From contig NZ_CP011310.1 in NCBI RefSeq assembly GCF_001077815.2, positions 2,604,001-2,668,000 of the forward strand: DNA of 64,000 bases, read 5' to 3'. Position 1 is the first letter of the stretch; each line of letters starts with the position of its first letter. The translations under genes were made by a program, and so were the position numbers. The notes beneath the pieces are model-generated. The model was not told where the DNA came from and did no database searches. It saw only the letters and a list, made by a program, of their open reading frames with translations. Source of the DNA: Aurantiacibacter atlanticus (GTDB taxonomy: Bacteria; Pseudomonadota; Alphaproteobacteria; Sphingomonadales; Sphingomonadaceae). Of this stretch, positions 37,901-44,278 are shown in pieces.

Positions 37901-38446
37901 TCAGACCTCGTGCGGCTCTGCCGGGGGATCGCTCGCCTGCCCGCTATCCTCCGCCGCCTCTGCCCAAAGCTCCTCGCCTTCCTCCACGCGCTCCACCAGC
38001 ACCTCGAAATCGTCTGTCGGCATGTTTTCGTGCTCGTAATGGCGCGGTCGGGCAATCGGGGTGAGCCGGTCCTGCATGGCGAGCAGCGCCACGGTGAGCC
38101 GCTCGTCATAACGGCGCGAGACATGCACCAGCTCGCCCTTGTGAAAATGCGGCACCTCCACCCCGTTCAGCGCCCGCTCCAACGCGGCCTGCGCCAGTGC
38201 ATCATACTGCCGCCGGAAGGCGCAATCCCACGCAATATCGAACGGCTCGCCCTTCAACCGATTGCGCAAGCGATAGGCCGACTGCCGGCTCATCCCCACA
38301 TGCCGCGCCGCCTGCGCGACATTGTGGGTGGCAGCAAGCTGACGGAGAAATTCCGCCTGCTTGGGCAGCGTCCAGCCATCATGGCGCGGCTGGATTTCGG
38401 CTGGTGTGGAGTGGGCGACGGGAGTGATCGATGTGTGATGTGTCAT
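37901..38446 (-). CDS. Helix-turn-helix DNA-binding protein, terminase-small-subunit-like
   Basis: 181 residues. A homeodomain-like HTH lies near 30-60: PKQAEFLRQLAATHNVAQAARHVGMSRQSAYRLRNRLKG, followed by WDCAFRRQYDALAQAALERALNGVEVPHFHKGELVHVSRRYDERLTVALLAM and a disordered acidic tail with AEAAEDSGQASDPPAEPHE. Proteins of this architecture are frequent and uncharacterised in sphingomonads. The HTH resembles that of phage terminase small subunits or Hin-type regulators, but no phage gene is near. Confidence 0.7.
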   Translation of the reverse strand: MTHHTSITPVAHSTPAEIQPRHDGWTLPKQAEFLRQLAATHNVAQAARHVGMSRQSAYRLRNRLKGEPFDIAWDCAFRRQYDALAQAALERALNGVEVPHFHKGELVHVSRRYDERLTVALLAMQDRLTPIARPRHYEHENMPTDDFEVLVERVEEGEELWAEAAEDSGQASDPPAEPHEV

Positions 38447-38564: not shown

Positions 38565-39362
38565 TCAGCTCGGAAGAAGCGCTTGGAAACGGTTTGAAAG
38601 CGAACCTGCCTCGAAATAGCGGTCCAGGTATGATCGGAATTCGCTATCCAAATTCATATTTTCATTCATTAGTCTCTGTGATGTAAGCTGGAATCTTTTC
38701 ACTGGAATAGCTAGAGCAGCATAATCTGCATCAAAAGCATAGTATGGCTCTGTGTCGGCAAGAAACGTCTCGATTTGATTCCCCAAGTCCCACTGTTCGT
38801 CAGAAAAAAAAGGATCGAACTTTTCTAATTCTGGTGGACGTCGCAACCTATACTGCACGACCTCACGGACTGACTTCAACCATTCATAGGTCATGATGCC
38901 ATCTATCGATTGAGATTGCAGGACATCTGATTCAGAAAAATAACGTTTAGCCAAAGCGATTGCCAAACCATGGTCACCAGACGATCGGCCATTATATTGC
39001 TTGCAGAATTCGCCTTGCTTGCAATCGAAAATTAGAACCCTCCCGGCACGAATAGGAGTATAACGCTCCAGCAATATTTCGGTTTTTAGCGAATAGAAAA
39101 CTGAATAGTAGAGTTTAACTGCCGCCCAAAGCCGATCACCCTTCTGAAGATCGCAGACAGCTTGAAGGAGCGATAGTGCCGCTCGTTCGTACGATGCGAG
39201 TGCGTCCGAATCTGAATGATCGCGCAATGCTTGCTCATCAGCGAGAGTGATCCTGTGAGCGCGAAGCTCGTCGCGAAATATCGCTAGATCCTCTGGCGAA
39301 GAGACCCCGAACTTCTCCTCAAAGTAGCGCTGGCATGCAGCGCGTTTAGAAGCTGTAAGCAT
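38565..39362 (-). CDS. Unknown protein with HEPN-like features (R-x4-H)
   Basis: 265 residues, low G+C. Around 75-100 the helix GDRLWAAVKLYYSVFYSLKTEILLERY resembles the AYYAxFHAAxALL helix of HEPN domains. It is followed by NGRSSGDHGLAIALAKRYF, where R126 and H131 give an R-x4-H motif, the catalytic signature of HEPN ribonucleases. The C-terminal half (EWLKSVREVVQYRLRRPPELEKFDPFF) is unfamiliar. It overlaps the DGQHR gene by 17 bases, so the two are translated together. The HEPN reading rests on motif shape only; fold and activity need testing. Confidence 0.5.
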   Translation of the reverse strand: MLTASKRAACQRYFEEKFGVSSPEDLAIFRDELRAHRITLADEQALRDHSDSDALASYERAALSLLQAVCDLQKGDRLWAAVKLYYSVFYSLKTEILLERYTPIRAGRVLIFDCKQGEFCKQYNGRSSGDHGLAIALAKRYFSESDVLQSQSIDGIMTYEWLKSVREVVQYRLRRPPELEKFDPFFSDEQWDLGNQIETFLADTEPYYAFDADYAALAIPVKRFQLTSQRLMNENMNLDSEFRSYLDRYFEAGSLSNRFQALLPS

Positions 39363-40401
39363 CCTTGTTTTCTATAGATTTTGTCATTCCACGCTCTAAG
39401 TAAGCGACGACATTTCTTCTCGCAGTCTTGCCATCCTGACCCTTCAGGTCTTCCCATGTCAAAAGTTCTTCCTCTTCAAGCTTTAGTATTGAGCCAATCG
39501 TCTCGACTGTGAAAGAACCCTTTTCCGCACATTTGAAAATTAGCTTTTCGAGCAGAAATTCGATCGCGCCATTGAAGCCAGCAGCTCGAAGAAATGGGTT
39601 CTGTGTTCCGTTGCCCCACAGCTTTTCATCCTGATACGGCCGTCGAATTGCTTTAAAATAATTACTTACTACGACCGTCTGATGCTCAAGCGATTTCAAA
39701 CCTCGCTTGCCAAACTCTCCATCTGGCTCAAGACCTTTTTTCAAGGCGGTCACAAAAGTGGAAAGTTCGATTTTTCCAACCCCGCGGGGTGAGCCGGGAA
39801 ATTTGATCAATCGATACAAAGGTGAATCTGGATCGTCATTCAAAGCTTGTGCGATGTCGCGAGCTCTATTTATTGCGTGCTTTGGATCATTTCCAACTTC
39901 ACCGAAGAGATCGTATAGAAGGCTCTTCGGCACCGGCCGTTGCTCGGTATTGATATTCAAGAAGATGGTTGCTGCTTGTTGGGTGCTTAGTCCGACACAA
40001 AGGGTCACAATGACAGTGCGCTCTCCCACCTCAACATTTTCCTCCATCGCATCTTCTAGCCCCGCCAATCTATGCTGTCCGTCGATAGCCTGCGCAGCAG
40101 AAGAGATCAGATCAAAAGAAACTTTGCCCGAATTGAATTCGACGTTCGACGATTCTTCCGTCCAATTCAATATAAATGAATTAAAGAATGTGTTACCTTG
40201 TAAAATATAGTCTTTTATACTTTGCACCCGTCGCTTACTCAAAGGTCGTTGCACGGCGCCTTCCTCATCATCAATACCGCGCACAGCAACGTAATAAATC
40301 TGCAAGAGATCTTTTACTTTCATCGGAAAAGTGAAAGCCCTTACGCCATCTAGCGATACCTCAATATATTCAGCTTTAAATTGTTTGCTCTTCGCTGCCA
40401 T
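39346..40401 (-). CDS. DGQHR-domain protein (DndB-like)
   Basis: 351 residues from ATG 40401 (a TTG at 40422 is in frame upstream). The signature AIDGQHRLAG (D107-R111 in this numbering) lies after LSKRRVQSIKDYILQGNTFFNSFILNW and before VTLCVGLSTQQAATIFLNINTEQRPVPKSLLYDLFGE. This DGQHR fold, related to ParB nucleases, is found in DndB, the regulator of DNA phosphorothioation, in DpdB of the deazaguanine DNA modification system, and in many uncharacterised accessory proteins. None of the dnd or dpd partners is nearby. G+C is low: 21 of 60 bases in 40141-40200. Confidence 0.85.
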   Translation of the reverse strand: MAAKSKQFKAEYIEVSLDGVRAFTFPMKVKDLLQIYYVAVRGIDDEEGAVQRPLSKRRVQSIKDYILQGNTFFNSFILNWTEESSNVEFNSGKVSFDLISSAAQAIDGQHRLAGLEDAMEENVEVGERTVIVTLCVGLSTQQAATIFLNINTEQRPVPKSLLYDLFGEVGNDPKHAINRARDIAQALNDDPDSPLYRLIKFPGSPRGVGKIELSTFVTALKKGLEPDGEFGKRGLKSLEHQTVVVSNYFKAIRRPYQDEKLWGNGTQNPFLRAAGFNGAIEFLLEKLIFKCAEKGSFTVETIGSILKLEEEELLTWEDLKGQDGKTARRNVVAYLERGMTKSIENKDAYSF

Positions 40402-40528
40402 ATTTTTCTTTCTAAAGACCAAGTCTAAGCGGTTAGAATCGCGAGGCGGTGGAATTAAGCGGAACTTTGGGAATGTAATTGAATTTCAATCGAAGGCAAC
40501 AAGCCTAGGCGTGGCATCAAGCCGCACT

Positions 40529-40705
40529 TCAATCTTTTGGCAAATCCAACTTCTCGCCCTTCGCCTTAAACAGCGCGCTCATCTCCTCCATGCCTTTCAG
40601 CGCGGCTTTACGGCTGGCTTCCGCAATGTCCACGCCCGATGCGGTGGCTTCGAGAAAGCTGTCGGGGTCGGCATTTTGCTTGAAGGCGTAGTCGAGCGCC
40701 AGCCG
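40529..40705 (-). pseudogene. Fragment of a second thiC, last ~58 codons only
   Basis: Read on the minus strand, the frame ends ...SRKAALKGMEEMSALFKAKGEKLDLPKD and a TGA at 40529-40531. The intact thiC ends ...[31 protein letters not shown]. The homology runs back through KQNADPDSFLEATASGVDIAEAS, matching [23 protein letters not shown], and fades at about 40705. No start codon precedes it; an in-frame TAG is just upstream. The similarity is clear but far from identity, so this is a divergent copy, not a recent duplication. The iron-sulfur Cys motif lies upstream of the preserved part and is missing. Confidence 0.8.
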
Positions 40706-40841: not shown

Positions 40842-41414
40842 TCAGGCTGGCATCAGCACGGTGTCGATCACGTGGATCACTCCGTTATCGGCATCGACAT
40901 CGGTGGCGACCACGATTGCGGTTCCGCCCGTGGCATCGCGCAGGACGACATTCTCGCCATCCATCATCGCGGTCAGCGTCGCGCCGTTCACAGTCTCGAT
41001 CGTGTAGCCTGCATCACCTGCGGCTTCGATCGCTGCAACAACATCTGTCGCCATCAATTCGCCAGCGACGACGTGATAGGTGAGGATGTTGCCGAGCGTT
41101 TCGGTATCGTCGGTGGTGAGCGTCTGCACCGTGCCTGCGGGCAGCTTGTCAAAGGCGGCATTGTTCGGCGCGAATACGGTAAGGGGTCCGTCACCCGACA
41201 AGGTCTCTACAAGGCCCGCGGCCTGAACGGCGGCGACCAGGGTCGAGAAATCAGGGTTGCCGGCAGCCACGTCGACAATCGTGGAGCTCGTGTCAGCGGG
41301 CGCTTCCATCGCTGGTTCGGCGTCTGCCATATCGGTGTCGTCAGGCGTTTCGCCGCAGGCCGAAAGCGCAATGGCGGTGGAGGCCACCAGCGGAATCATC
41401 AATTTATGGAACAT
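40842..41414 (-). CDS. Fasciclin-domain (FAS1) lipoprotein
   Basis: 190 residues from MFHKLMIPLVASTAIALSAC (lipobox SAC, AAAGGA six bases before the ATG). After an acidic linker, one FAS1 domain (about 50-188): TIVDVAAGNPDFSTLVAAVQAAGLVETLSGDGPLTVFAPNNAAFDKLPAGTVQTL, LTYHVVAGELMATDV and NGVIHVIDTVLMPA, with the H1 and H2 boxes. Secreted adhesion-type domain, common in sphingomonads. It lies downstream of the thiC operon but has its own likely promoter (172-base gap). Confidence 0.93.
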   Translation of the reverse strand: MFHKLMIPLVASTAIALSACGETPDDTDMADAEPAMEAPADTSSTIVDVAAGNPDFSTLVAAVQAAGLVETLSGDGPLTVFAPNNAAFDKLPAGTVQTLTTDDTETLGNILTYHVVAGELMATDVVAAIEAAGDAGYTIETVNGATLTAMMDGENVVLRDATGGTAIVVATDVDADNGVIHVIDTVLMPA

Positions 41415-41585
41415 GGTCGTCCTTTCGAAAAATCTTGGGTCCCCTTCGTCTGCATCCAAAATGGGGAATGCGGACGTGAATTGGGACACGGACGAAAGGA
41501 CAGGGGCCTTAAGGACGGGGGTACAGGCGGATCGATAAGGGACCGCATTTGCGAAGATGGTGGCGCGTATGGCGTGCGCCCGCCC

Positions 41586-41942: not shown

Positions 41943-44278
<2,336 letters not shown>

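What the first reader, a model, noticed from the sequence alone, without database searches (positions are those of the whole stretch)
38565..40401. Two-gene DGQHR + HEPN-like cassette: candidate new defence or DNA-modification system
Seen: a DGQHR-domain gene (DGQHR at residues 107-111) overlaps by 17 bases a 265-residue gene with a YYSVFYSLKTEILL helix and R126-x4-H131. Both are poor in G+C (21 of 60 bases at 40141-40200, against 38 of 60 at 43081-43140). Known: DGQHR proteins occur in Dnd (DndB) and Dpd (DpdB) systems; HEPN R-x4-6-H proteins are RNases in many toxin and abortive-infection systems. Inference: a compact pair in which the DGQHR protein binds or modifies DNA and the HEPN protein is the effector. 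None of the dnd, dpd or restriction partners is adjacent, so it does not fit a described system.
Basis: partly seen in the sequence, partly recalled or inferred. Interest (0 to 1): 0.85.

Follow-up and report, generated by a model that had tools for sequence, protein, structure and literature searches.

The report
Two-gene DGQHR–HEPN phage-defence candidate
Two overlapping bacterial genes, found side by side in very different bacteria and in their viruses, look like a compact, undescribed anti-virus switch in which one protein senses trouble and its partner, probably an RNA-cutting enzyme, shuts the cell down.

Summary
In detail: a 351-aa DGQHR-domain gene overlaps a 265-aa gene by 17 bp in the lowest-GC stretch of the window. 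The pairing is conserved: in 80 non-redundant pairs from diverse bacteria, plasmids and viral contigs, 77 lie within 60 bp, and the two distance trees agree (Pearson 0.85, shuffle maximum 0.09). Searches started from the second gene also find it only beside DGQHR (4 of 4 other genomes; 9 of 9 viral loci). No third gene was found to recur. The second protein is probably a divergent HEPN domain (weak Pfam, PDB-profile and fold evidence; one profile test negative). That fits the alternative active site proposed for AbiV/AF0298-type HEPNs. A foreign thiC tail upstream suggests horizontal acquisition. Other DGQHR clades carry an upstream membrane protein or fused nuclease-like domains, suggesting a sensor with exchangeable effectors. 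Most likely an abortive-infection or superinfection-exclusion module; function untested. Prior art: HEPN–ParB operons and fusions were tabulated in 2013; five open-access literature searches gave no paper on this pair.

The parts
39346..40401 (-). DGQHR-domain gene (351 aa; TTG alternative start at 40422). DndB/DGQHR family; Q51-R52, D107-R111, F147 and N151 invariant in 47 aligned homologues
40069..40083 (-). DGQHR codons (residues 107-111)
   Evidence: invariant in the 47 aligned homologues
38565..39362 (-). HEPN-like partner gene (265 aa), mostly helical in the model, with strands at residues 101-105 and 109-113
39346..39362 (-). 17-bp overlap of the two genes
   Evidence: overlap or near-contact is conserved, 77 of 80 pairs within 60 bp
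38970..38972 (-). H131 codon, candidate alternative catalytic histidine
   Evidence: 77 of 80 homologues
38865..38867 (-). R166 codon, invariant
   Evidence: 80 of 80
38850..38852 (-). Y171 codon, invariant; stands where Rx4-6H HEPNs have H
   Evidence: 80 of 80
40529..40696 (-). scrap of a foreign thiC 3' end upstream of the pair (probable acquisition footprint)
   Evidence: 69% nt identity (166 nt) to own thiC, 85% (159 nt) to the same end in another genus of the family
41943..44081 (-). resident thiC gene (context; the ORF as listed probably begins upstream of the true start)
   Evidence: 83% identical to the ORF before the pair in L041; the name ThiC is recalled, from no family call
40842..41489 (-). 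fasciclin-domain gene flanking the insert (context)
37901..38446 (-). small HTH gene flanking the insert, with relatives in other genomes of the genus (context)

Best explanation
A horizontally acquired two-gene defence cassette, most likely of the abortive-infection or superinfection-exclusion type. Shown: the two genes form a conserved, co-inherited unit on chromosomes, plasmids, viral contigs and phages, and no other gene was found to recur beside them. Inferred from sequence families: the DGQHR protein is a ParB/Srx-fold NTPase or nuclease-like protein that senses an infection signal (phage DNA ends, modified bases or nucleotides), and its partner is a HEPN-type RNase using R166 and H131 instead of Rx4-6H. 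Inferred from gene order and co-inheritance: the DGQHR protein holds the partner inactive in a complex until triggered; RNA cleavage then stops the infected cell.
For: Pairing in both directions. From DGQHR: an iterated partner profile hit 91 ORFs among all ORFs (>=60 aa) of 190 loci, all on the same strand as and downstream of a DGQHR gene (two of the loci are copies of the window's own). With >=600 bp downstream, 82 of 85 DGQHR genes scoring >200 bits are paired, 5 of 10 between 150 and 200, 1 of 80 below 150. From the partner: 5 of 398 genomes have it, own included, all 5 next to DGQHR; 9 of 9 viral loci are on contigs already found by DGQHR. Co-inheritance: Pearson 0.85, Spearman 0.68, maximum of 1000 permutations 0.09. 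Mobility: 40 of 70 viral-collection loci are paired (not de-duplicated); phage PfAC19 (complete genome record) and an Acinetobacter phage contig carry the pair; integrase or phage gpA 14-337 bp upstream in L043, L128, L131; foreign thiC scrap. HEPN: 23 of 55 members hit PF05168 at E<=0.1, best 5.1e-4; the top two of four PDB profile hits are HEPN proteins, E 0.02; model pLDDT 92.9, with 2hsb at probability 0.91 and TMt 0.60, the highest in the 50 rows shown. The R-plus-upstream-H layout matches the alternative active site in PMC3710099. Fusion precedent: 4 of 7 scanned ~780-aa DGQHR proteins (27 such ORFs known) have a weak C-terminal HEPN_Swt1 match.
Against: No experiment. No fold match at E<=0.001; 2hsb ranks sixth by E-value, behind four chains of a sensor domain and a synthase. 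The window protein's own Pfam HEPN hit is below cut-off (E 0.11); one member hits an unrelated Pfam family slightly better (PF18107, 3.5e-4) than any hits HEPN. Profile comparison with nine 'FHxQQA'-type PF05168 proteins was negative; the closer-family profile A5 gave only 9xbd at E 0.18. The H of Rx4-6H is replaced by Y, so RNase activity is uncertain. Three close DGQHR genes with room downstream have no recognisable partner (L155, L176, L070). Neighbours are not rich in one known defence family: no PADLOC or PHROG model listed hits more than 4 of 126. Co-inheritance follows from adjacency and does not by itself show interaction.
Confidence: 0.55

Rival explanations
1. A toxin-antitoxin module: the HEPN-like protein is a toxin and the DGQHR protein its antitoxin, selected for maintenance of mobile elements rather than for anti-phage activity.
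For: Two-gene overlapping layout, carriage by plasmids and phages, and HEPN genes strictly co-localised with MNT genes are known (PMC3710099, passages).
Against: The DGQHR protein is large (351 aa) and keeps the superfamily motifs QR, DGQHR and FxxxN, unusual for an antitoxin; most type II antitoxins are small (recalled). TA and defence roles are not exclusive.
Confidence: 0.2
2. A modification-linked or type IV-like restriction system: the DGQHR protein is the effector (nuclease/NTPase acting on modified DNA, as proposed for GmrS), and the HEPN-like protein is an inactive helical scaffold or specificity subunit.
For: DGQHR shares its motifs with GmrS/DUF262 (PMC4619093, passages). A methyltransferase sits directly upstream in L007 and a methyltransferase plus NotI-family REase in L004. 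The H of Rx4-6H is absent.
Against: Methyltransferases are not a constant companion: no single model hits more than 4 of 126 neighbours of 38 loci (the total over models was not counted). R166, Y171 and H131 are among the most conserved residues of the partner, which argues for a site with a function there.
Confidence: 0.15
3. A housekeeping or regulatory pair (e.g. autoregulated DNA-binding protein and helical partner) with no role in conflict.
For: DndB is reported as an ATP-dependent transcriptional regulator (PMC10853773, passages).
Against: Patchy distribution (5 of 398 phylum genomes, own included; 1 of 396 order genomes by a less sensitive single-protein query), presence on phages and plasmids, probable acquisition footprint.
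Confidence: 0.1

Closest known systems
HEPN-T family of AF0298 type (PDB 2hsb) and AbiV abortive-infection protein
   Same: Basic residue of the Rx4-6H motif kept, H of the motif lost, second conserved H N-terminal to it; 2hsb has the highest probability and TMt among the 50 fold matches shown.
   Different: No AbiV model is among the 12 Pfam families that any of 55 members hit at E<=0.1; extra N- and C-terminal helices in the model; DGQHR partner in every case found.
HEPN–ParB fusions (Saro_3948 type) and HEPN families 'in operon with ParB' (MAE_28990, Ribo L-PSP-HEPN) in Anantharaman 2013
   Same: HEPN combined with a ParB-superfamily protein; 4 of 7 scanned ~780-aa DGQHR relatives have a weak C-terminal Swt1-like HEPN match.
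   Different: Here two separate genes and a HEPN type with R-x4-Y; none of 5 loci with a PF18737 (MAE_28990) hit shows a DGQHR ORF in the roughly 1.5 kb held on each side (3 of the 5 are over the cut-off).
DndB / DpdB / DGQHR_dnd_1
   Same: Same DGQHR domain family.
   Different: Scores far below the equivalog cut-offs (24 of 328, 60.6 of 300, 75.1 of 450 bits); partnered with a HEPN-like gene.
GmrSD type IV restriction (DUF262 DGQQR + HNH)
   Same: QR, DGQ(H/Q)R and FxxxN motifs of a predicted ParB/Srx-fold domain plus a nuclease partner.
   Different: HEPN-like rather than HNH partner; GmrSD_N did not reach E<=1 for the window protein.
MNT-HEPN toxin-antitoxin pairs
   Same: HEPN protein encoded with a constant partner.
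   Different: The partner is a DGQHR protein, not a minimal nucleotidyltransferase.

Membership tests
DGQHR domain (TIGR03187) | Score above the curated cut-off and QR, DGQHR and FxxxN motifs | tested here: met
   125.6 bits against 58.85; the motif residues invariant in 47 aligned homologues, present in the window protein
ParB/Srx superfamily | ParB/Srx three-dimensional fold of this protein | not tested
   structure job for A4 was never accepted; PDB sequence searches gave no credible relative
HEPN superfamily | Recognisable profile match | tested here: inconclusive
   23 of 55 members hit PF05168 at E<=0.1, best 5.1e-4; window protein 0.11; hhalign against nine 'FHxQQA' PF05168 proteins negative
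HEPN superfamily | HEPN fold | tested here: inconclusive
   Confident model; best by probability and TMt is HEPN 2hsb (0.91, 0.60), 4nqf HEPN TMt 0.48, but E 0.48 and 1.2; BFVD uninformative
HEPN superfamily | Canonical Rx4-6H motif | tested here: not met
   R166-x4-Y171 in 80 of 80
HEPN superfamily, AF0298/AbiV-type alternative site | R of the motif kept plus conserved H N-terminal to it | tested here: met
   R166 80/80, H131 77/80; layout described in PMC3710099. Spatial proximity of the two residues not measured
Dnd (DndB) phosphorothioation | DndB equivalog score | tested here: not met
   24 bits against 328
Dpd 7-deazaguanine system | DpdB equivalog score | tested here: not met
   60.6 bits against 300
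MAE_28990 HEPN with ParB | PF18737 match and the same ParB partner | tested here: not met
   PF18737 is not among the 12 families hit by 55 members; 0 of 5 PF18737-hit loci show a DGQHR ORF
Anti-phage defence system | Protects against phage | not testable with these tools
   needs experiment

The most novel reading that the evidence does not exclude
DGQHR proteins are a general infection-sensing chassis with exchangeable killing modules: a HEPN-like RNase encoded downstream (this clade), a 2-5-span membrane protein encoded upstream (another clade), nuclease-like and HEPN domains fused on either side (~780-aa clade), occasionally an HNH gene upstream (L070) or a GIY-YIG gene downstream (L009). 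That would make a whole undescribed class of modular immunity comparable in logic to CBASS or Thoeris, of which Dnd- and Dpd-associated DGQHR proteins are one specialised branch.
Probability: 0.4. Interest if true: 0.87.

Novelty: new variant of a known kind. Interest (0 to 1): 0.74.

Why it matters
DGQHR proteins are known mainly as Dnd/Dpd accessories (recalled, and in the passages seen), and what the domain does is an open question. A free-standing two-gene version with a constant, co-inherited probable RNase gives a minimal system in which that question can be tested in a laboratory strain. If confirmed, it adds a compact, phage-carried immune module whose HEPN-like half has no model in PADLOC-DB 2.0.0. 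The change of partner type between DGQHR clades hints at a family-wide sensor–effector rule.

Tried and rejected
Rejected: R126-x4-H131 as the HEPN motif (R126 in 6 of 80). Rejected: MAE_28990 as the family. Rejected: a conserved third gene; upstream genes of the 28 closest loci differ, and 126 neighbours (up to two on each side, >=110 aa, E<=1e-10) of 38 paired genome loci show no model with more than 4 hits (the lists show 25 of 257 and 25 of 98 families, sorted by number of members). Rejected: the 37901-38446 HTH gene as part of the unit; relatives occur in genomes of the genus without the pair.

Led nowhere: single-sequence search of the partner in genome contigs (8 pattern matches, none confirmed) and plasmids; PDB sequence searches with single proteins; profile A5 against PDB gave only 9xbd at E 0.18 and an unrelated chain; hhalign against nine PF05168 proteins of the 'FHxQQA' type was negative (of 12 loci returned I chose ten and nine gave an ORF; they are one sub-type, so this lowers but does not settle the HEPN claim); BFVD fold search gave nothing useful; promoter, terminator and repeat scans gave nothing decisive.

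Counter-cases: three close DGQHR genes with room downstream lack a recognisable partner (L155, L176, L070); fragments of broken partners in L062 and L086 and in G695. Of 17 plasmid and phage regions opened, 5 (L003-L007) have the pair. The DGQHR score used for the 82/85 against 1/80 contrast comes from a profile of the window protein and five relatives chosen because a gene of similar size followed them, so the bins measure closeness to this clade; the counts include two copies of the window's own locus and are not de-duplicated. The 80-pair set dropped partners under 230 aa, DGQHR ORFs under 300 aa, the second copy of the window locus and identical partners.

Full report
What is there. On the minus strand, a 351-aa ORF (39346-40401) and a 265-aa ORF (38565-39362) overlap by 17 bp. 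The first holds a DGQHR domain above the curated cut-offs (TIGR03187, 125.6 bits against 58.85; Pfam DndB PF14072, 61.9 against 29.1) but fails the DndB, DpdB and DGQHR_dnd_1 equivalog cut-offs by a wide margin. The second has only a sub-threshold HEPN hit (PF05168, E 0.11). The genome has one match to the DGQHR protein. The pair is the lowest-GC part of the window (45.8% against 58.6%).

The pair is a unit. Of 17 plasmid and phage regions opened around DGQHR hits, five (L003-L007) have an unannotated 294-325-aa gene directly behind the DGQHR gene. Four of those five proteins align with the window protein with M1, W79, Y85, Y86, R166 and Y171 invariant, at 11-19% identity; the fifth was recognised later by the profile. 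The closest relative, in a Sphingomonas, is 73% identical for DGQHR and 44% for the partner. Paired loci come from Desulfobulbaceae, Colwellia, Methylophilaceae, cyanobacteria, Bacteroidetes, Lachnospiraceae and others. An iterated partner profile over all ORFs of 190 loci hit 91 ORFs, every one on the same strand as and downstream of a DGQHR gene; four of these are fragments in L062 and L086, and two are copies of the window gene itself. With at least 600 bp downstream, 82 of 85 DGQHR genes above 200 bits are paired, 5 of 10 between 150 and 200, and 1 of 80 below 150 (the profile was built on this clade, so the bins measure closeness to it). In 80 non-redundant pairs, 77 are within 60 bp of each other; the other three overlap by 92, 140 and 229 bp as called, with the longest start assumed. 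Patristic distances correlate (Pearson 0.85, Spearman 0.68) against a maximum of 0.09 in 1000 permutations; this shows that the two genes travel together, not that the proteins touch.

The reverse test avoids choosing loci by DGQHR. A partner profile over 398 genomes of the phylum found 5 genomes with a hit (own included), and all 5 have a DGQHR ORF directly upstream; one copy is broken into two frames. A partner search of viral contigs found 9 loci, all on contigs already found through DGQHR.

What the partner is. Across 80 homologues R166 and Y171 are invariant, Y85 is in 79, H131 in 77, W79 in 74, R126 in 6. Evidence for HEPN: 23 of 55 members hit PF05168 at E<=0.1 (best 5.1e-4); the best two of four PDB profile matches are 'HEPN domain-containing protein' 9xbc and 9xbd (E 0.02); the AlphaFold2 model is confident (pLDDT 92.9, pTM 0.91), and of the 50 Foldseek rows shown (279 matches) the HEPN protein AF0298 (2hsb) has the highest probability (0.91) and target TM-score (0.60). 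Against: 2hsb ranks sixth by E-value (0.48) and no match reaches 0.001; one member hits an unrelated Pfam family at 3.5e-4; profile comparison with nine PF05168 proteins of another sub-type was negative; the closer-family profile gave 9xbd only at 0.18; the BFVD search was uninformative. Anantharaman and colleagues (PMC3710099; [quoted passage not shown] The window family has that layout: helices 40-73 and 77-98, an insert with a strand pair (101-113), H131 near the start of helix 129-142, R166 towards the end of helix 158-172. I could not measure the R166–H131 distance.

What the DGQHR protein is. Q51-R52, D107-R111 and F147xxxN151 (FLNIN) are the three DGQHR-domain motifs shared with GmrS, for which a ParB/Srx fold and NTP binding or endonuclease activity were predicted (PMC4619093, passages seen). 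DndB is described as a ParB-superfamily protein and claimed ATP-dependent regulator (PMC10853773, passages seen). A structure job for the window's DGQHR protein was never accepted.

Mobility and context. Upstream genes differ among the 28 closest loci looked at: a thiC-like gene ending 49 bp before the DGQHR ORF in Sphingomonas L041, a tyrosine integrase 337 bp upstream in Colwellia L043 and 80 bp upstream in viral contig L128, phage gpA 14 bp upstream in viral contig L131. A restriction endonuclease gene lies near the pair in L003, a methyltransferase plus NotI-type REase in L004, a methyltransferase in L007. Among 126 neighbours of 38 paired genome loci no listed PADLOC or PHROG model hits more than 4; the models at the top are methyltransferases and helicases (the total over models was not counted). 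The pair occurs in the filamentous phage PfAC19 (complete genome record) and an Acinetobacter phage contig and in 40 of the 70 viral-collection loci, not de-duplicated.

Acquisition footprint. Upstream of the window pair lies a 168-bp scrap of a thiC 3' end (40529-40696). It is 69% identical to the resident thiC end (166 nt) and 85% (159 nt) to the same end in another genus, the best match outside the own genome in a search of 249 genomes of the family, own included. In Sphingomonas the pair sits directly behind thiC. The gene name ThiC is recalled, not from a family call. The simplest reading (inference) is that the pair came in with a piece of a donor's thiC tail. None of the 13 other same-genus genomes shows the partner (single-protein query), and in G100 the interval between the fasciclin and HTH genes holds an unrelated 479-aa ORF with a P-loop-like sequence by eye, so the site looks variable.

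Exchangeable partners (most novel reading). Of 61 other DGQHR ORFs of at most 430 aa, 32 have an immediately upstream same-strand ORF with two or more predicted membrane spans, against 1 of 89 in the HEPN-paired set and 0 of 40 among longer ones (hydropathy only, sets not de-duplicated). Of 27 DGQHR ORFs over 700 aa I scanned 7: 4 have a weak C-terminal HEPN_Swt1 match (E 6e-5 to 0.054, all below the curated cut-off), 3 have weak N-terminal nuclease-like matches (E about 0.015), one has no match at all. One DGQHR gene has an HNH gene just upstream (L070) and one an annotated GIY-YIG nuclease gene just downstream (L009). This is what a sensor with interchangeable effectors would look like; it is not proof.

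Literature. Search listings: 'DGQHR'+'HEPN' 0 papers; 'DGQHR' 6; 'PF14072' 14, of which 13 look unrelated by title; 'DndB'+'HEPN' 4; at least 3 of HEPN, ParB, anti-phage, two-gene: 14, of which 12 listed. I saw passages of PMC10853773, PMC12839542, PMC3710099 and PMC4619093; those passages do not describe this pair. The other papers I know only from the listings. Prior art that limits novelty: the 2013 table lists HEPN in operon with ParB (MAE_28990, Ribo L-PSP) and fused to ParB (Saro_3948). None of five loci with a MAE_28990 profile hit shows a DGQHR ORF. Subscription papers and preprints could not be searched.

Verdict. A real, conserved two-gene module, undescribed in the sources searched, probably sensor plus HEPN effector, best explained as phage defence or superinfection exclusion. 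Membership in HEPN is likely but not proven; function is inference.

Noticed in passing
L113, L074, L108, L147, L109, L039, L038, L033, L175 and others (immediately upstream of the DGQHR ORF): Other DGQHR ORFs of at most 430 aa often (32 of 61) have an adjacent upstream ORF of about 120-275 aa with 2-5 predicted membrane spans: a second recurrent DGQHR partnership.
   Followed up: partly
L034 2772-5078, L077 5230-7626, L099 1599-3845, L103 5079-7352: ~780-aa DGQHR proteins with a weak C-terminal HEPN_Swt1 match, some also with a weak N-terminal nuclease-like match.
   Followed up: partly
window 40529-40696 (-): Scrap of a foreign thiC 3' end, 85% identical over 159 nt to the same end in another genus of the family.
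   Followed up: yes
L230 6570-8009: In a same-genus genome the interval between the fasciclin and HTH genes, where the window has the pair, holds a 479-aa ORF with a P-loop-like sequence and no Pfam match above cut-off; the site looks variable.
   Followed up: partly
L070 5489-5989: DGQHR gene directly preceded by an HNH endonuclease gene and lacking a recognised HEPN-like partner.
   Followed up: no
L008 and L036 (Lactococcus and Lactiplantibacillus plasmids), L120, L097, L117: DGQHR preceded by a ~250-275-aa protein with predicted spans (one in L120, two in the others), possibly another partner family.
   Followed up: no
L192, L196 (G695), L086, L062: HEPN-like partner genes broken into two or more frames beside a DGQHR gene.
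   Followed up: no
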